Shown here piece by piece: positions 1-57,508 of a stretch of DNA of 64,000 nt (position 1 is its first letter; each line of letters opens with the position of its first letter). Source of the DNA: Spelaeicoccus albus. GTDB lineage: Bacteria > Actinomycetota > Actinomycetes > Actinomycetales > Brevibacteriaceae. The stretch lies in assembly GCF_013409065.1 (NCBI RefSeq), contig NZ_JACBZP010000001.1:868001-932000 (forward strand), given 5' to 3'. Made by a program: the position numbers and the translations under genes. The notes under the pieces are model-generated. The model saw only the letters and a list, made by a program, of their open reading frames with translations. It made no database searches and had not been told where the DNA came from.

Positions 1-121
1 AGTGGTGGCGAATGGTCAACGGCCCCCGCCGAGTGGTGGCGAATGGCTGCGAAATCGCCGATTTCGCAGCCATTCGCCACCACTCGGTGAAAGGGGGCAG
101 CCGTTCGCCACCACTCGGCGG
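1..121. repeat. Palindromic intergenic repeat, site 1
   Basis: A perfect palindrome spans 29–87: 29-base arms beginning CCGAGTGGTGGCGAATGGCT pair around one central base at 58. A further unit in the same direction as the left arm is cut by the window edge (1–15), and one in the opposite direction lies at 99–121. The order is therefore half unit, full palindrome, half unit. It sits just beyond the stop of the FAD dehydrogenase gene. There is no T-run, so a simple intrinsic terminator is unlikely. The same family recurs at six other places in the window. Confidence 0.93.
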
Positions 122-2219: not shown

Positions 2220-3727
2220 GAGTGTGTTCCTTCCTTAGCCTTGTCGACCGTGACGTTGCCGATTCCCATACGGATCTTGACGATCAGGTGGGCCGGGCCG
2301 TTTCCGTACTTCGTCGTCCGGGTCCGGACGTCCGCGCGGTCGAATCCATCCGAGTCGTTGCTCGAGCTGCCGAAGCCTCGGTCCGCGTTTCCGCGGTGCC
2401 ATTCGCCGGCGCCCGCCATCTTCACTTTCGCTGTCTCATCCGGGGGCAGCACCACCTTGACGTCGCCGATCCCCGAATTGACCGGAACCGTGGTGACGCC
2501 GGACGACGGCACTGTCAGATTGCTCAAGTCGACAGTCGTCGAACCGACGCCAACGGAGTACCCGTGTTCGGCCACCCGCACGGATGCCGGCGTCCAGGTG
2601 CTGTTCTGCACTGCGGCAAGGCGTCCGGCCGCCGGCACTATCGCGACGATGAGCGCGATAATCAGACCGACCCACGCCCAACCGGTCAGCCCGCCGCCGC
2701 GCCGTCCCCAGGCGCCGGCCAACACGATGCCGATGCCGACGACGGCCAGGCCGAGACCGACCGCGACGAGCCGGCCGTTGCCCGGCAGGCCGATTTCGCG
2801 TTCGACGAGCCATCCGGCTGCCACGGCAACGATCGCGAGCCCCGCAAAGAGCAGCGTAAGTGGTCCCCCGGCCGGCTTGGTGATCATGCGCGGAGGCCGC
2901 GGAACCGGCGGTGCGACGCCGACGCCCCGAGTATCGGTCCGGTAGCGCACCGTCGATACGGCCGGCTGATAGGCCGGTCGCGGCGCGGCATCGCCGTAAC
3001 CGGACGCCGGGAACGTGGCGGTCGGCTCATCGCCGGACGCCGGGAACGCGGCGGTCGGCTCATCGGTCGGCCGCGCATCGACAACAGTTTCGTCATCGCC
3101 TGCCGGGTCAGCCGCCGGCTCGCCTCCCGGTTGCCGAGGTTCGCTTCCCGGTTGCCGAGGTTCGTCTCCGCCCTGCCCGGGACCGCCGCCGGCTTGCCCG
3201 GGACCGCCACCGTAGTGCCGGCGTCCGGCGTCGCCCGCTCCCGGACCCTGCGGCCGGTGGTCGTCATGGTGCTTGACGGCGTACACGATCACGGCCACTA
3301 CGATGCCGATGCCAAGGACCGGCCCGAACCAGCCCCAGAAGTCGTGACCGGCGGGCCAAAACAGCCAGGGTGCGTGGATTCCGGGATTGCCCAGGCCGAG
3401 CAACACCACTAAGCACGAGCCGATGAAGCCTCCGCTCCAGACACCGTGCAGCACTCCTTCGGCGTGGATCCGGCCGTCGGGTTCGGGGAGGAACAACCAG
3501 GCCAGCCCGTACAACAGCACGCCAATGCCGAAGAACAGGCACAAGACGATTGCCAGGCCGCGGACCAGTGTCCGGTCGATCCCGGTGCGCTCGGCGACGG
3601 CACCCGCGACGCCGCCGATCCAGCGGCCGTCGATGGTGCGGGTGATTCCCGTGCCGCGGATCGAGTCGAAAAAGCGTCCGCCGGGACGCCGCGGCGGCGG
3701 GTACTGTGAAAAGTTGTCGTTGGTCAT
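2216..3727 (-). CDS. PspC-domain membrane protein with LiaF-like C-terminus
   Basis: A protein of 503 residues. A PspC domain lies at about residues 25–85 (TIDGRWIGGVAGAVAERTGI, then a hydrophobic helix). Further membrane helices follow, with a long Gly/Gln/Pro-rich cytoplasmic or linker segment at about 165–260 containing near-exact repeats (ATFPASG, QPGSEPRQPG). Four hydrophobic segments come next. The C-terminal domain (LTVPSSGVTTVPVNSGIGDV onward) resembles the beta-rich LiaF/DUF2154-type domain. PspC and LiaF proteins act at the membrane in envelope-stress sensing. The gene diverges from a PspC-fused histidine kinase, so it is probably the sensor or inhibitor partner of that kinase; this is inferred from context. 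Confidence 0.85.
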   Translation of the reverse strand: MTNDNFSQYPPPRRPGGRFFDSIRGTGITRTIDGRWIGGVAGAVAERTGIDRTLVRGLAIVLCLFFGIGVLLYGLAWLFLPEPDGRIHAEGVLHGVWSGGFIGSCLVVLLGLGNPGIHAPWLFWPAGHDFWGWFGPVLGIGIVVAVIVYAVKHHDDHRPQGPGAGDAGRRHYGGGPGQAGGGPGQGGDEPRQPGSEPRQPGGEPAADPAGDDETVVDARPTDEPTAAFPASGDEPTATFPASGYGDAAPRPAYQPAVSTVRYRTDTRGVGVAPPVPRPPRMITKPAGGPLTLLFAGLAIVAVAAGWLVEREIGLPGNGRLVAVGLGLAVVGIGIVLAGAWGRRGGGLTGWAWVGLIIALIVAIVPAAGRLAAVQNSTWTPASVRVAEHGYSVGVGSTTVDLSNLTVPSSGVTTVPVNSGIGDVKVVLPPDETAKVKMAGAGEWHRGNADRGFGSSSNDSDGFDRADVRTRTTKYGNGPAHLIVKIRMGIGNVTVDKAKEGTHS

Positions 3728-9825: not shown

Positions 9826-9923
9826 CGAGTGGCGGCGAATGGCTGTCCACGGCGCTCCCCTGCCGCCGAGTGGTGGCGAATGGCGGCAAAATCGCAGATT
9901 TTGCCGCCATTCGCCACCACTCG
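9826..9923. repeat. Palindromic intergenic repeat, site 2
   Basis: The palindrome at 9867–9923 has 27-base arms beginning CGAGTGGTGGCGAATGGC and a three-base centre. Its inner stem reads GGCAAAATC against GATTTTGCC, changed on both arms relative to other sites. A single unit, GAGTGGCGGCGAATGGCTG, precedes it at about 9828–9846. It lies between the riboswitch leader of the exporter and the stop of the trehalose-phosphatase fusion gene. Confidence 0.93.
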
Positions 9924-9953
9924 ATGGAATGGGCCGCTACCGGGAATGACCCC

Positions 9954-13911: not shown

Positions 13912-15735
13912 GTGCCATCTTCGACCCATGTCTCTCAGTTGCTCGCCGCCGCCGTCCAAGACGCGTACCGGTCCGCCCTCGACCTCGACATCACTCAGGA
14001 CGACGCGCAGATCCGCGTGTCGACGCGCCCCGAGGCCGATTACCAGTGCAACGCCGCAATGGGAATCGCCCGCAAGGTCGGCAAGCCGCCGCGCGAGGTC
14101 GCCCAGGCCGTTGCCGACACTCTCCTCCAACCGGGCGACGCCGACCGGCTGATCGCGGCTGCGGAGGTCGCCGGACCCGGATTCATCAACATCCGCATCG
14201 GAGACGACTGGCTCGGCTCGGCCGTGGAGCAGGTGGTCACCGACGAGAGGTGCGGCGTCCCGGCCGCCTCATCGCCAAAGCGCTTCGCCCTGGACTACTC
14301 CAGCCCGAACGTGGCCAAGGAGATGCACGTCGGCCATCTGCGCTCGTCCATCATCGGCGATGCAGTGGCCCGGATTCTGCGGTTCGCCGGGCACGAAGTC
14401 CTGGCGCACAATCATTTGGGCGACTGGGGAACGCCCTTCGGCATGCTCATCGAGCATTTGCGCGACGTCGACTTCGGCGCGGCCGATGCCGAGGACGCCG
14501 ACAACCCGGCCACGCCGACCATTGCGGACTTGAACGCGTTCTACCAGCAGGCGCGGGTGAAATTCGATTCCGATCCGGAATTCGCCGACCGGGCGCGCCA
14601 CCGCGTGGTCCTGCTCCAGTCCGGGGACGAGCCGACGCTGAAGCTATGGCGGATGCTCGTTGCCGAATCGACGCGGCATTTCGAGCAGGTGTATTCGCTG
14701 CTCGGGATCGGGTTGACCGAAGACGACGTCTACGGCGAGAGTTTCTACAATCCGGTGCTTGCCGACGTGGCGACCGAGCTCGAGGACAAGGGGCTGACGT
14801 CGATCAGCGACGGCGCGCTGTGCGTGTTCCCGCCCGGATTCACGGGCAGGGAGGGCGAGCCGCTGCCGCTCATCGTGCGCAAGCGCGACGGCGGGTACGG
14901 ATACGCCGCAACTGATCTGGCCACTGCGCGCTATTGGCTCCTCGAGCGGAAATGCGATGAGCTGCTGTACGCCGTTGGAACGCCGCAGTCGTTGCACTTC
15001 CGGATGGTGTTCGAAGCAAGCAGGCAGGCCGGCTGGCTCGGCGAGGAGCAGACGGCAACCCATATCGCTTTTGGGTCGATGCTCGGCGCCGACGGAAAGA
15101 TGTTCAAAACGCGCGCCGGCGGCACCATCAAGCTCATTGATCTGCTGGGTGAGGCCATCGACCGCGCACGGGCCCGCTTGGAGCTCGAGGATGCCGGCTC
15201 CGAGGCCGAGGACTCCGACACGATCGCCCGCCAGGTCGGCATCGGCGCCATCAAATACGCGGATTTGTCGTCCGCCCGCGAGAACGACTACGTGTTCGAC
15301 TGGGACCGGATGTTGTCGATGGAAGGCAATACGGCCGCCTACGTGCAATATGCGATCGCCCGCATCAACTCCATCGGTCGGAAAGCGGCCGGCGCGGCCG
15401 GAACCGGGGCCGGTGCGGCTCCCGAAACCGAGGCGGACGCGGCGTCCGGCGCCGTCGTGCTGGGCGAGGAGCCCGAACGGGCTCTCGCGCTGCGGATCCT
15501 GCAGCTGCCCGCGGCGATCGAAGCGGCAATAGGCACCTACGAGCCGCACAAGATCTGCACGTACCTGTTCGACACCGCCACCGAGTTCTCGCAGTTCTAC
15601 CAAAAATGCCCGATCCTGGCACCGACGACGCCGCCGGACGTACGGGCCTCGCGGCTCGCACTGGCGGACGCGACCGGACGGGTGCTTCGCCTGGGGCTCG
15701 GACTGCTCGGCATCGAGTCGCCCGAACACCTCTGA
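13912..15735 (+). CDS. argS: Arginyl-tRNA synthetase
   Basis: A class I synthetase of 607 residues that charges tRNA-Arg. The N-terminal Add-1 domain is followed by the HIGH motif as HVGH in KEMHVGHLRSSIIGD and the KMSK-like loop GKMFKTRAGG. The C-terminal anticodon-binding domain ends HKICTYLFDTATEFSQFYQK. Start is GTG. The protein is somewhat longer than many bacterial ArgS, with an acidic insertion (GAADAEDADNPATP) after the HIGH motif and an Ala/Glu-rich loop before the C-terminal domain. In many actinobacteria argS precedes lysA; here a palindromic repeat and a lipoprotein gene follow. Confidence 0.96.
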   Translation: MPSSTHVSQLLAAAVQDAYRSALDLDITQDDAQIRVSTRPEADYQCNAAMGIARKVGKPPREVAQAVADTLLQPGDADRLIAAAEVAGPGFINIRIGDDWLGSAVEQVVTDERCGVPAASSPKRFALDYSSPNVAKEMHVGHLRSSIIGDAVARILRFAGHEVLAHNHLGDWGTPFGMLIEHLRDVDFGAADAEDADNPATPTIADLNAFYQQARVKFDSDPEFADRARHRVVLLQSGDEPTLKLWRMLVAESTRHFEQVYSLLGIGLTEDDVYGESFYNPVLADVATELEDKGLTSISDGALCVFPPGFTGREGEPLPLIVRKRDGGYGYAATDLATARYWLLERKCDELLYAVGTPQSLHFRMVFEASRQAGWLGEEQTATHIAFGSMLGADGKMFKTRAGGTIKLIDLLGEAIDRARARLELEDAGSEAEDSDTIARQVGIGAIKYADLSSARENDYVFDWDRMLSMEGNTAAYVQYAIARINSIGRKAAGAAGTGAGAAPETEADAASGAVVLGEEPERALALRILQLPAAIEAAIGTYEPHKICTYLFDTATEFSQFYQKCPILAPTTPPDVRASRLALADATGRVLRLGLGLLGIESPEHL

Positions 15736-15786
15736 CGGCCGGCGCCCCGTTCGCCTCCATTGGCACCTCCGCTCTACCTCCTCCCG

Positions 15787-15878
15787 CCGAGTGGTGGCGA
15801 ATGGCTGTGAAATCGGCGATTTCACAGCCATTCGCCACCACTCGGCACGGCGGGAGAGCCATTCGCCACCACTCGGCG
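15787..15878. repeat. Palindromic intergenic repeat, site 3
   Basis: A perfect 59-base palindrome at 15787–15845 with arms starting CCGAGTGGTGGCGAATGGCT. Its inner stem is TGTGAAATC against GATTTCACA: compared with site 1 a C became T on one arm and the paired G became A on the other. A reversed single unit (AGCCATTCGCCACCACTCGG) follows at 15856–15878. It lies between argS and the lipoprotein gene, both on the plus strand. Confidence 0.94.
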
Positions 15879-15951
15879 GTGAGCAGCGCGTCATCCAATC
15901 GTTAATCCCCCGGTAGTTGCAATGTGACCGGCCCGGGTATTCGATATCACT

Positions 15952-16755
15952 ATGACTTCCCCAAGACATACTCAATTTCGCTTGCTGTTCGCCCCCGCGG
16001 TTATCGCCGTGATTGGGCTGACGTTGGCAGGCTGCTCGAACGACGACTCGGGCGACAACGGGTCATCGAATCAAGCGTCGAGCCAGTCCCAGGCCGACTC
16101 GACGCCGAATTCGTCGAAGGATTCGTCGGGCGCCGACAAGGGCTCTGCCCGGAAGTCAACGAAGTCGGACTCGCAGTCCGACAAGTCAGGCACCAAATCC
16201 GACGGCTCGAAGCGCGACGGTTCCAAATCCGACAACCAGTCCGAGGGCGGCAATTCGGACACGAAGTCCGGCTCGAAGAATAACGACAAGAGCGGGTCGA
16301 AGTCCGACTCGCAAGCAAAAGGCTCGTCGGTCGCGCGGTGCCGGTCGAGCCATCTGGCGGCGTCCGTCCGGCATGAACCCGGCGGTGACTCGGCCGGCCA
16401 CACGGGCATCTACGTCGTCGTGAAGAACACCGGACAGTCGCCGTGCCTGATGAAAGGCTACGGCGGATTGTCGTTCGTGGGCCATAGCAACGGAACCCAG
16501 CTGGGCGCGCCGGCCGACCGCACCAAGACACGCGTTCCGTCGGTGGTCGTCATTCCGAACGGGCATGCGCGCGCGCCCGTGCAGATCTCGAACCCCGGCA
16601 ACTACGGCGCCAAGTGCCATCAAACGACAGCCGACGGGTTCCGTTTCTACCCGCCGAACGAAACGCATTCGATGTTCATCAAGAAGTCCATCAAGGCGTG
16701 CGACAACTCGAAGGTGCACCTACTGCAGATGCGGCCGTTCGAGCCGATGAGCTGA
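15952..16755 (+). CDS. DUF4232-type lipoprotein
   Basis: A protein of 267 residues with a lipoprotein signal: charged N-terminus, hydrophobic stretch and lipobox LAGC. A very long Ser/Lys/Asp/Gly-rich linker (about 30–125) leads to a C-terminal domain of the DUF4232 type with conserved Cys residues (VARCRSSHL, SPCLMKGYGG, GAKCHQT, KACDNS). DUF4232 domains are surface-exposed in actinobacteria; function is unknown. The gene is convergent with the DUF421 gene, only five bases apart. Confidence 0.82.
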   Translation: MTSPRHTQFRLLFAPAVIAVIGLTLAGCSNDDSGDNGSSNQASSQSQADSTPNSSKDSSGADKGSARKSTKSDSQSDKSGTKSDGSKRDGSKSDNQSEGGNSDTKSGSKNNDKSGSKSDSQAKGSSVARCRSSHLAASVRHEPGGDSAGHTGIYVVVKNTGQSPCLMKGYGGLSFVGHSNGTQLGAPADRTKTRVPSVVVIPNGHARAPVQISNPGNYGAKCHQTTADGFRFYPPNETHSMFIKKSIKACDNSKVHLLQMRPFEPMS

Positions 16756-38726: not shown

Positions 38727-39341
38727 TTAGAACGGCGGTTCGTCGTTGCTCGGACCGCCCCAGTTGCCGCCTTGTCCCGATTGCGGGTTCGACGCGGCCC
38801 ACGGGTCGTCCTGCGGCGCGCCTTGCTGGCCGCCGAAGCCGCCCTGCTGCTGGCCGCCGTAACCGCCTTGACCGCCCTGAGGCCCGCCAAAGCCGCCCTG
38901 CTGCGGACCGCCCTGCTGCTGGCCGCCGAAGCCGCCCTGCTGCTGGCCGCCGAAGCCGCCTTGCTGGCCGCCGCCGCGGGAGGTCTTGGTGACCTTGGCC
39001 GAGGCATAACGCAACGCCGGGCCGACCTCGTCGACCTCGAGCTCCATGACCGTACGCTTTTCGCCTTCTTTGGTCTCGAAACTGCGAGACTTGAGCCGGC
39101 CCTGCGCCACGACGCGGGTACCGCGAGTGAGCGATTCCGCAACGTTCTCGGCCGCGTCGCGCCATACCGAGCAACGGAGGAACAGCGTCTCGCCGTCCTT
39201 CCACTCGCCGGACTGACGATCGAACGCTCGGGGTGTCGATGCCACGGTGAAGTTGGCAACGGCAGCGCCGGACGGCGTGAACCGCAACTCAGGATCGGCG
39301 GTCAAGTTGCCGACGATCGTGATGATTGTGTCGCCTGCCAT
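38727..39341 (-). CDS. ssb: Single-stranded DNA-binding protein
   Basis: A protein of 204 residues with an OB-fold (residues 1–115: [40 protein letters not shown]) followed by a long disordered linker of repeated GGFGGQQQ and related Gly/Gln units. The acidic tip NDEPPF is the interaction peptide for replication and repair proteins, close to the usual DDDIPF/DDEPPF. It protects single-stranded DNA during replication and repair. The repeats are a likely site of length variation. Confidence 0.96.
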
Positions 39342-39792: not shown

Positions 39793-39856
39793 TCGCCGAG
39801 AGTGGAGTTGTTGTCGGTTTTCGGTCCCGAAAACCGACAACAACTCCACTCTCGGC
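39793..39856. repeat. 64-base perfect palindrome upstream of rpsF
   Basis: Two exact 31-base arms, beginning CGCCGAGAGTGGAGTT and containing TGTTGTCGGTTTTCGG, face each other across two bases (TC). The outer bases CGCCGAGAGTGG resemble the ends of the other palindromic repeats (CCGAGTGGTGG), but the inner sequence differs. It lies between rpsF and the stop of the short acs-linked gene. There is no T-run, so it does not look like an ordinary terminator. Confidence 0.95.
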
Positions 39857-39911
39857 GCTTGGACGGAAGGGGCGCCCGGCGGGGTTCGGCGGTGCGGAGG
39901 ACGGCGCGGTG

Positions 39912-46683: not shown

Positions 46684-46706
46684 TGCCGAGTGGCGGCGAA
46701 TGGCTG
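46684..46706. repeat. Single repeat unit, site 4
   Basis: One unit GCCGAGTGGCGGCGAATGGC plus a few bases, without its inverted partner. It lies between the ponA stop and the GT87-like start and is the only unpaired copy seen. The CGCCGGGTGGTC segment after it may be a decayed remnant. Confidence 0.8.
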
Positions 46707-52350: not shown

Positions 52351-52446
52351 CCCCGAGTGGCGGCCAATGGTCGTCGCCCCGCCCCGAGTGGCGGCCAATG
52401 GTCATCGGGCGGCCGGTTTTGCCGCCATTGGCCACCACTCGGCGGG
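52351..52446. repeat. Palindromic intergenic repeat, site 5 (diverged)
   Basis: Two direct units, CCCCGAGTGGCGGCCAATGG, at about 52351–52370 and 52382–52401, are followed by a reversed unit (GCCATTGGCCACCACTCGGC, about 52424–52443). The motif has GGCCAATGG in place of GGCGAATGG, a shared change. The order is direct, direct, inverted, so it does not form one long perfect stem. It lies between the divergent nfeD and poxB genes, and 52211–52558 contains no gene. Confidence 0.9.
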
Positions 52447-56034: not shown

Positions 56035-56122
56035 GGTTCTCCTCGTCGAGATGGATAACTCTTGCATTCTCGCACGCGCGCCATCAAATGGCGGCCAGTG
56101 GTTTATCCCCGTTGTCCCCGCA

Positions 56123-56243
56123 CCGAGTGGTGGCGAATGGCTGCGAAATCGGCGATTTCGCAGCCATTCGCCACCACTCGGCGAACCGGGACAGCCGTTC
56201 GCCACCACTCGGCGAACCGGGGCAGCCGTTCGCCACCACTCGG
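56123..56243. repeat. Palindromic intergenic repeat, site 6
   Basis: A perfect 59-base palindrome at 56123–56181 with a single central base is followed by two reversed units 31 bases apart (ending 56212 and 56243), each containing CAGCCGTTCGCCACCACTCGG. This is the most extended copy. It lies between the acyl-CoA synthetase start and the nuclease-like gene. Confidence 0.95.
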
Positions 56244-56358: not shown

Positions 56359-57363
56359 ATGAATCGTCAACCCATTGAGACGCCGATCGCCTTCACCGTC
56401 GAGGACGGCCGCAGTCACGGGCTGTCGCGGGCCATGATGCGCTCGAGCCGCTACAAGAAGCCCTGGCGCGGCGTTCGCATCAAAGCCGAAAACGCCGAGG
56501 ACACGTTCGTTCGCGCCTCTCTTGCGCAATTGCAGCGCCCGGATGCCGTCATCAGCCATTCCACCGCGGCCGAATTGCTGGGGTTGCCGGTACGGCCGGG
56601 CGGTGGATTGCACCTCACGACCGACACCGACAAGGCACCCCAAGCGAAGACACGCGCACAGCTGCCCGGCACGATTGCGCACCGGTCGACGTTATCGGCC
56701 GACGACAGCATGACCTTGGCGACACCGGTCATCGCTCCATCGAATTTCGATGGCGGCCGCACCGGGATCGAACAGCTCACGGCGCCCGCCACACACCCGC
56801 TGCCGGACGGCGTCCGGATCACCACGCCGCTGCGTACCTGGGTCGACTTGGCAGCGCAGGGGTTGCCGGTGGACGACCTGGTCGCGGTCGGCGATGCCCT
56901 GATCAGCTTGCGGTTCAGCTTCTGCACAAGTGCGGAATTGCTGGACGCCGTCCGGCAGCTGCGGCCGATTCGCGGCGTCCGGCATCTGCGCCAGGCGGCC
57001 GAACTGATTCGCGCCGGCACCGATTCCGTCAAAGAGACCGAGCTGCGACTCGCCATCGTCAAGGCGGGCTTTCCCGAACCGGAGATCAACGTACCCGTTC
57101 TCGATCCCGCCACGGGCGGCAGAATTGCGCAGCCGGACCTCCAGTACCGCGCGCTGCGCATCGCCATCGAATACGACGGCGACCACCACCGCGTCGATCG
57201 AAAACAGTGGCAGCACGACCTGGTGCGCAACGACGGACTGATCGACCTGGGGTGGCGAGTTCTGCTTGCGACCGACCTGACGCTTCGCGAAGGGAAACAA
57301 TGGACGCGATTCATCGACCGGTTGGCGGCTCTCGTGCATGATCAACAACGCGGGATTCGGTAG
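56359..57363 (+). CDS. DUF559-type endonuclease-like protein with AbiEi-like N-terminus
   Basis: A protein of 334 residues. The N-terminal part (FTVEDGRSHGLSRAMMRSSR, GVRI) resembles the winged-helix AbiEi-type antitoxin fold often fused to such proteins. The C-terminal domain is a Vsr/DUF559-like PD-(D/E)xK nuclease fold: the conserved Glu lies in SVKETELRL, Asp260 in QPDLQYRALR and Glu271/Asp273 in IAIEYDGDHHRVDRKQWQHD. The two repeat sites 6 and 7 lie immediately outside the gene on both sides. Proteins of this composition are common and multi-copy in actinobacteria, with no established role. Nuclease activity is inferred. Confidence 0.82.
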   Translation: MNRQPIETPIAFTVEDGRSHGLSRAMMRSSRYKKPWRGVRIKAENAEDTFVRASLAQLQRPDAVISHSTAAELLGLPVRPGGGLHLTTDTDKAPQAKTRAQLPGTIAHRSTLSADDSMTLATPVIAPSNFDGGRTGIEQLTAPATHPLPDGVRITTPLRTWVDLAAQGLPVDDLVAVGDALISLRFSFCTSAELLDAVRQLRPIRGVRHLRQAAELIRAGTDSVKETELRLAIVKAGFPEPEINVPVLDPATGGRIAQPDLQYRALRIAIEYDGDHHRVDRKQWQHDLVRNDGLIDLGWRVLLATDLTLREGKQWTRFIDRLAALVHDQQRGIR

Positions 57364-57414
57364 CGCCCGGTCCGATTGCGCCTTCGTCGCGCCGCCCCGC
57401 CCCGGCTTTCCGGA

Positions 57415-57508
57415 CCGAGTGGTGGCGAATGGCTGCAAAATCGGCGATTTTGCAGCCGTTCGCCACCACTCGGCGGGAGGGGACAGCCGTTCGCCACCAC
57501 TCGGCGGG
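57415..57508. repeat. Palindromic intergenic repeat, site 7
   Basis: A 59-base palindrome at 57415–57473 whose inner stem is TGCAAAATC against GATTTTGCA, changed in step on both arms compared with sites 1 and 6. One arm position differs (GCCATT becomes GCCGTT), leaving a G·T pair. A further reversed unit follows at about 57483–57506. It lies between the nuclease-like gene stop and the convergent cca stop. Confidence 0.93.

What the first reader, a model, noticed from the sequence alone, without database searches (positions are those of the whole stretch)
15787..15845. Stem changes in the repeats are matched on both arms
The inner stem reads TGCGAAATC/GATTTCGCA at sites 1 and 6, TGTGAAATC/GATTTCACA at site 3, TGCAAAATC/GATTTTGCA at site 7 and GGCAAAATC/GATTTTGCC at site 2. 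At least three base pairs changed in step. This keeps pairing and suggests that the hairpin itself, as RNA or as extruded DNA, is selected, or that copies arise by a fold-back process.
Basis: seen in the sequence. Interest (0 to 1): 0.75.

Follow-up and report, generated by a model that had tools for sequence, protein, structure and literature searches.

The report
Nuclease-linked dispersed DNA palindromes
A long mirror-image DNA repeat scattered through this bacterial genome keeps its two arms matched even when the sequence changes, and copies of it flank a DNA-cutting-enzyme-like gene; the same pairing of palindrome and gene recurs with unrelated palindrome sequences in other actinobacteria, which points to an undescribed kind of repeat-and-enzyme system.

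Summary
Genome-wide there are at least 73 copies of the 60-bp palindrome. On a tree-based null, 29 paired changes fall on the same branch against 2.2±1.4 expected; the loop pair and the flanks show no excess. The matched region is a 26-bp stem with a 3-nt loop.

Nothing favours RNA: G·T and A·C mismatches are equal (7:7) relative to transcription, there is no U-tract, half-site bases are fixed, and extra half-arms repeat at 31 bp (rarely 41/42 or 62/63), i.e. whole helical turns.

The unexpected part is what accompanies it. Two copies flank a 334-aa protein in the window (56359-57363) with an AbiEi-like N-terminus and an MTES_1575/DUF559 (Vsr-type) nuclease C-terminus. The only other full-length homolog in the genome is flanked by a second, unrelated palindrome family. 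Homologs elsewhere are flanked by their own dispersed palindromes, even in another order (Tsukamurella). Strong palindromes lie beside 41/53 homologs versus 4/96 controls, and 31-bp half-site repeats recur there.

I read this as a REP/RAYT-like arrangement with a different enzyme. Binding, cutting and spreading are inferred, not shown. No paper linking this protein family to palindromes was found in the library searched.

The parts
15786..15846 (.). Lies 50 bp after the stop codon of the argS-like gene 13939-15735.
15858..15875 (-). Extra half-site 31 bp after the palindrome's minus arm
28..88 (.). Family-1 palindrome (site 1)
100..117 (-). Extra half-site, 31-bp spacing
9865..9925 (.). Family-1 palindrome (site 2, GGCAAAATC/GATTTTGCC)
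9826..9843 (+). Extra half-site at 41-bp spacing (one helical turn more than 31)
46687..46704 (+). Solitary half-site
52383..52443 (.). Degenerate family-1 copy: half-sites keep the 39-bp offset, but the left inner arm is replaced by spacer-like sequence
52354..52371 (+). Extra half-site, 31-bp spacing, sharing the locus-specific GGCCAATGG variant
56122..56182 (.). Family-1 palindrome upstream of the nuclease-like gene
56194..56242 (-). Two extra half-sites (56194-56211, 56225-56242), 31-bp spacing
56359..57363 (+). 334-aa protein: AbiEi-like N-terminus and MTES_1575/DUF559-type (Vsr-fold) nuclease C-terminus, motif PDLQY...EYDGDHHR...W..D intact; flanked by family-1 palindromes on both sides
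57414..57474 (.). Family-1 palindrome downstream of the nuclease-like gene (TGCAAAATC/GATTTTGCA)
57486..57503 (-). Extra half-site, 31-bp spacing
39794..39857 (.). Copy of the unrelated family-2 palindrome (GCCGAGAGTGGAGTTGTTGTCGGTTTTCGG arm); about 9 copies in the genome, two of which flank the second homolog of the nuclease at G000:295388-296353

Best explanation
The palindrome is the dispersed cognate DNA site of a single-copy protein that joins an AbiEi-like DNA-binding domain to a Vsr/MTES_1575-type nuclease domain. Arrangement (shown): a nuclease gene with a palindrome on each side, plus many solo palindromes at gene ends, each a 26-bp stem made of two inverted half-sites and often more half-sites at 31 bp. 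Working (inferred): the winged-helix part binds half-sites on one face of the helix; the palindrome is extruded or single-stranded at some step (replication, repair) and is acted on as a hairpin by the nuclease; copies spread and are kept symmetric, either because an asymmetric copy is no longer a substrate or because the break is repaired using the opposite arm as template. That makes it a functional counterpart of REP sequences with their RAYT transposase, with an unrelated enzyme.
For: In-step changes confined to the hairpin-forming part and replicated across species for a second palindrome family (42 both-side cells vs 13.9+-3.2), including orthologous loci. Sequence-fixed half-site bases A-G-T-G-G-n-G-G-n-n-A-n-n-G-G in arms and in extra half-sites alike. 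Spacing of half-sites 31 bp (79), 41/42 (7), 62/63 (3), and arm offset 39 in 73 of 74 although inner sequence varies. The only two full-length homologs of the nuclease in the genome are each flanked on both sides by copies of a different dispersed palindrome family. In the sister genus a third family is dispersed and flanks the gene on both sides in six genomes; a fourth (G029, about 22 copies) lies 84 bp after a homolog; Tsukamurella has it on both sides of a 'DUF559 domain-containing protein' and dispersed; Arthrobacter likewise has dispersed copies near homologs. Matching repeats up- and downstream: 23/33 and, in a second sample, 9/20 homologs, versus 4/198 control genes, one of which is this nuclease. 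Strong palindrome in the flanks 41/53 vs 4/96; direct half-site repeats at exactly 31 bp in 10 of 43 repeat-bearing flanks vs 0 of 114 control repeats. AbiEi proteins are known to bind inverted repeats (PMC7319586).
Against: No binding, cutting or movement was observed. About a quarter to half of homologs lack matching repeats on both sides at my thresholds. Many of the homolog loci are orthologs, so counts are not all independent. The domain calls are below Pfam's curated cut-offs; the structure model is worthless (mean pLDDT 33) and no solved relative was found. No insertion with an empty site was demonstrated.
Confidence: 0.6

Rival explanations
1. Operator only: the palindromes next to the gene are autoregulatory binding sites (as for AbiEi antitoxins), and the dispersed copies spread by another agent or serve to titrate the protein; the nuclease domain has nothing to do with dispersal.
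For: AbiEi and Rv2827c bind pairs of 23-bp inverted repeats in their own promoters (PMC7319586); the upstream palindrome lies 176 bp before the start codon of the window gene.
Against: A palindrome also lies just after the stop codon in three palindrome families and in Tsukamurella, and unrelated families are dispersed in unrelated genomes each with its own homolog.
Confidence: 0.2
2. No selection on the hairpin: arms stay matched because template switching or cruciform repair (quasipalindrome correction) copies one arm onto the other.
For: Copy-private multi-base replacements are matched at once (e.g. 679044 GCATTTTTCGTAAAAATGC; 3486173 GGAAATTTTCAAAATTTCC). A G-C to C-G swap on both arms separates orthologs with 97% identical flank on one side and 92% on the other (L235/L242); two separate transversions there would be unlikely. 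Intermediates are scarce: 68 matched versus 28 unmatched altered cells in 69 good copies.
Against: It does not explain fixed half-site bases, fixed spacing or the gene association; one-sided mismatches persist in all families. It is compatible with the best explanation as its mutational part.
Confidence: 0.3
3. RNA element: a 3'-UTR hairpin, e.g. a bidirectional terminator or mRNA stabiliser, kept by compensatory mutation.
For: Copies are intergenic and prefer gene ends (35 convergent, 39 tandem, 10 divergent of 85 clusters, several divergent ones being IS cases).
Against: G.T equals A.C on the transcribed strand, 7:7; no U-tract; spacers C-rich and variable; half-site bases fixed also where unpaired; helical spacing; REPs share the same positional preference without being terminators.
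Confidence: 0.07

Closest known systems
REP/REPIN sequences with RAYT (TnpA-REP) transposases: REPtrons (PMC2817692, PMC3116915, PMC8266576)
   Same: Dispersed extragenic palindromes; a low-copy gene flanked by two copies; repeat sequence differs between lineages along with the protein; complementary mutations in the stem; target of insertion sequences.
   Different: No Y1 (HUH) transposase in the genome; no GTAG or CGTC tag; arms about 27-30 bp instead of 10-16; helically spaced half-site arrays; the flanked gene encodes an AbiEi-like/Vsr-type nuclease; actinobacteria, whereas RAYTs were described from gammaproteobacteria.
AbiEi antitoxins / Rv2827c (type IV toxin-antitoxin)
   Same: Similar N-terminal region (PADLOC AbiEi E = 5.7e-9); known binding to 23-bp inverted repeats with cooperativity.
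   Different: No AbiEii-type toxin gene beside it (neighbours are a PolyA_pol/HD protein and an AMP-binding enzyme); fused to a nuclease domain; sites dispersed through the genome.
MTES_1575/DUF559 Vsr-type REase domains (PMC3710099)
   Same: All 17 aligned homologs match PF18741; catalytic-looking residues invariant.
   Different: The published description concerns domain fusions in conflict systems; no palindromes are mentioned in the passages found.
Untagged REP-like palindromes of bacteria lacking a known enzyme (noted in PMC3733652, including M. tuberculosis)
   Same: Dispersed hairpins without tag or RAYT.
   Different: Here a candidate partner protein is identified.

Membership tests
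REP/REPIN-RAYT system | Dispersed extragenic palindromic repeats in many copies | tested here: met
   At least 73 copies, nearly all intergenic
REP/REPIN-RAYT system | GTAG (or CGTC) tetranucleotide beside the palindrome | tested here: not met
   No conserved tag; flank is variable, C-rich
REP/REPIN-RAYT system | RAYT (Y1_Tnp, PF01797) gene in the genome | tested here: not met
   No match in the whole genome; controls ring
REP/REPIN-RAYT system | Associated gene flanked by two copies of the repeat | tested here: met
   Met, but by a nuclease-like gene of another superfamily
REP/REPIN-RAYT system | Protein and its repeats coevolve | tested here: inconclusive
   Protein identity and flank similarity correlate (Spearman 0.47; 0.23 below 60% identity), partly through shared ancestry of the flanks
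MTES_1575/DUF559 nuclease | Profile match and conserved catalytic residues | tested here: inconclusive
   17 of 17 homologs match at E<=0.01, best 7.6e-8, the window protein at 1.9e-4, which is below the curated cut-off; PD...E-Y-(D/E)-G-x-H-H conserved
AbiE type IV toxin-antitoxin | AbiEi followed by an AbiEii (DUF1814) toxin gene | tested here: not met
   Neighbours are PolyA_pol/HD and AMP-binding proteins
Intrinsic terminator | Hairpin followed by a T run | tested here: not met
   No terminator-like site at 15700-16000
Insertion sequence or MITE | Target-site duplication and excisable unit | not tested
   No empty-site comparison could be made for the palindromes; array ends vary

The most novel reading that the evidence does not exclude
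A mobile-repeat system, widespread in Actinomycetota, in which an AbiEi-type DNA-binding domain fused to a Vsr-like endonuclease recognises helically spaced half-sites, nicks the extruded palindrome, spreads it to gene ends and copies one arm onto the other, so that the in-step changes are the footprint of the enzyme's own action: a REP system built on a PD-(D/E)XK nuclease instead of a HUH transposase.
Probability: 0.3. Interest if true: 0.92.

Novelty: new variant of a known kind. Interest (0 to 1): 0.8.

Why it matters
[quoted passage not shown] Here a concrete candidate appears, repeated with at least five unrelated palindrome families that are dispersed (two in this genome, two in the sister genus, one in Tsukamurella). 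It also offers a biological substrate for a very common but uncharacterised group of actinobacterial proteins (MTES_1575/DUF559 with an AbiEi-like domain), and a system in which selected hairpins and templated arm correction can be told apart by experiment.

Tried and rejected
RAYT transposase: searched for and absent. Known RNA family: none in the window. Chance or simple local homogenisation: excluded by the tree-aware null and by extra half-sites as an internal control. Insertion sequences as the source: IS481-like and IS110-like elements sit inside or beside some copies, but as targets of insertion. First covariance model R1 had its pairs two columns out of register; it was discarded and rebuilt as R2. 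Structure prediction from a single sequence was useless, so no fold search was run. Profile search of solved structures gave nothing. Exact search of named genomes found only two unrelated chance matches, because the arm sequence is confined to this lineage. G062/G068 palindromes gave only weak, mostly one-sided differences by eye and were not pursued. Paper searches on DUF559, MTES_1575, EDxHD, AbiEi and REP-associated nucleases found no earlier link; the library lacks most subscription journals.

Full report
CHECK. The window is part of a 4.03-Mb single-contig genome at 65% GC. The other four sites read exactly as reported. A half-site pattern (18 bp, <=3 mismatches) occurs 285 times in the genome versus 9 for the reversed control; a covariance model and half-site pairing give at least 73 palindromes with the same arm offset of 39.

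IN-STEP CHANGES. Over pairs 5-30 in 69 well-preserved copies, 68 cells are changed on both sides with pairing kept, 28 are unpaired (11 G.T, 11 A.C, 6 other). Twenty-one different double changes occur, including wholesale replacements of the inner stem (679044, 3486173, 3453635). Tree-aware null: 29 coincident paired changes versus 2.2+-1.4. The tree was built from the same short sequences, so it is rough. The shuffle control agrees. The would-be pair next to the central base, the most variable place of all, has no coincident change, and the flanking columns 1-4 are at the null: the process sees a hairpin with a 3-nt loop. Extra half-sites act as internal control: they share variants with the neighbouring arm much less than the two arms do with each other, although more than random loci, so some local duplication also occurs.

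DNA OR RNA. With elements oriented by tandem flanking genes, G.T and A.C mismatches are 7 and 7; small numbers, but no sign of RNA wobble. There is no T run. The half-site has fixed bases (AGTGGnGGnnAnnGG) in arms and in extra half-sites alike. Extra half-sites lie 31 bp apart in 79 cases, otherwise 41/42 (7) or 62/63 (3), with unrelated spacer sequences; arm offset is 39 in 73 of 74, even in copies whose inner arms no longer pair. Fixed bases at whole-turn spacing speak for a protein on duplex DNA; matched inner stems speak for a hairpin at some stage. Both seem to apply.

POSITION. Practically all clusters are intergenic: 35 convergent, 39 tandem, 10 divergent, usually tens of bp after a stop codon (simple gene caller of my own). 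The family is absent from 58 relatives and from named genomes apart from two stray matches.

THE PARTNER GENE. In the window, two copies (56122-56182 and 57414-57474) enclose one gene, 56359-57363. A second palindrome family with unrelated arms (39794-39857 in the window; about 9 copies in the genome) encloses the gene at 295388-296353. The two proteins are 42-43% identical and are the only full-length members in the genome. Both have a weak but consistent MTES_1575/DUF559 nuclease match at the C-terminus and an AbiEi-like N-terminus; MTES_1575_REase was described as a Vsr-type fold (PMC3710099).

REPLICATION ELSEWHERE. 53 of 60 genomes of the family have homologs. A third palindrome family (AACGGTTGGTAAGTTC arm) flanks the gene on both sides in G005, G013, G017, G027, G075 and G079 and is dispersed there. 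In G029 a family of about 22 copies has a degenerate copy 84 bp after a homolog. Outside the family, a Tsukamurella tyrosinosolvens 'DUF559 domain-containing protein' has 27-bp-arm palindromes immediately before and after it, with further copies on seven other records, mostly between convergent genes; Arthrobacter sp. StoSoilB13 has 37 strand-matches (about 18 copies) of one near a homolog. Statistically: matching repeats on both sides in 23/33 homologs and 9/20 of a second sample versus 4/198 control genes; strong palindrome beside 41/53 versus 4/96; half-site repeats at exactly 31 bp in 10 flanks versus none of 114 control repeats. Control genes came partly from regions chosen for palindromes, which works against the result. 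Homolog loci include orthologous groups, so the effective number is smaller, roughly a dozen distinct palindrome sequences.

IN SITU CHANGE. Orthologous fam-3 copies differ in step: G005 GTTCTGCTCGA/TCGAGCAGAAC versus G027 GTCCTGGTCGA/TCGACCAGGAC; G027 AAGTTCG/CGAACTT versus G075 AACTTCG/CGAAGTT with 97% and 92% identical flanks; the copy upstream of the gene GTTCGTCGCG versus GTTCTTTGCG on both arms. One-sided states also occur (G013, G075). So symmetry is restored or kept after insertion; fold-back copying at dispersal alone is not enough. Across the fam-3 set 42 both-side cells versus 13.9+-3.2.

MECHANISM AND STATUS. Shown: covariation, hairpin-shaped limits, half-site constraint, helical spacing, association with the gene. 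Inferred: that the protein binds the half-sites, that it cuts, that it causes dispersal, and how symmetry is kept. AbiEi-type antitoxins bind inverted repeats (PMC7319586), which makes binding plausible. [quoted passage not shown]

Noticed in passing
G000:667164-668672, 732161-733731, 3465658-3467197 (L056, L059, L098): A 1.4-kb IS481-like element (404-aa DDE-type integrase-like protein) is inserted in the centre of three palindromes with 15-bp target duplications, and beside a fourth (L062): the palindromes are insertion targets.
   Followed up: partly
L071 1944130-1945450; junctions also at L055, L069, L103: An IS110-like element joins at the same point of the outer arm (CACTC|CTTTACTGG) in four places, i.e. 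it uses the palindrome arm as target; its bridge RNA should match the arm.
   Followed up: partly
window 39794-39857: Copy of a second, unrelated palindrome family (about 9 copies) whose arms also show matched changes.
   Followed up: yes
L172 and L173 (G068, G062): Another long palindrome shared by two species with a matched C-G to T-A change; not linked to a gene here.
   Followed up: no
G000:329933-330103 and 488750-489118 (L176, L177): A fragment with an internal stop and a distant relative of the nuclease, both without palindromes nearby.
   Followed up: partly
window 38824-38987 and 3000-3065: In-frame-looking tandem repeats within predicted coding regions (24- to 39-nt and 33-nt units).
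   Followed up: no
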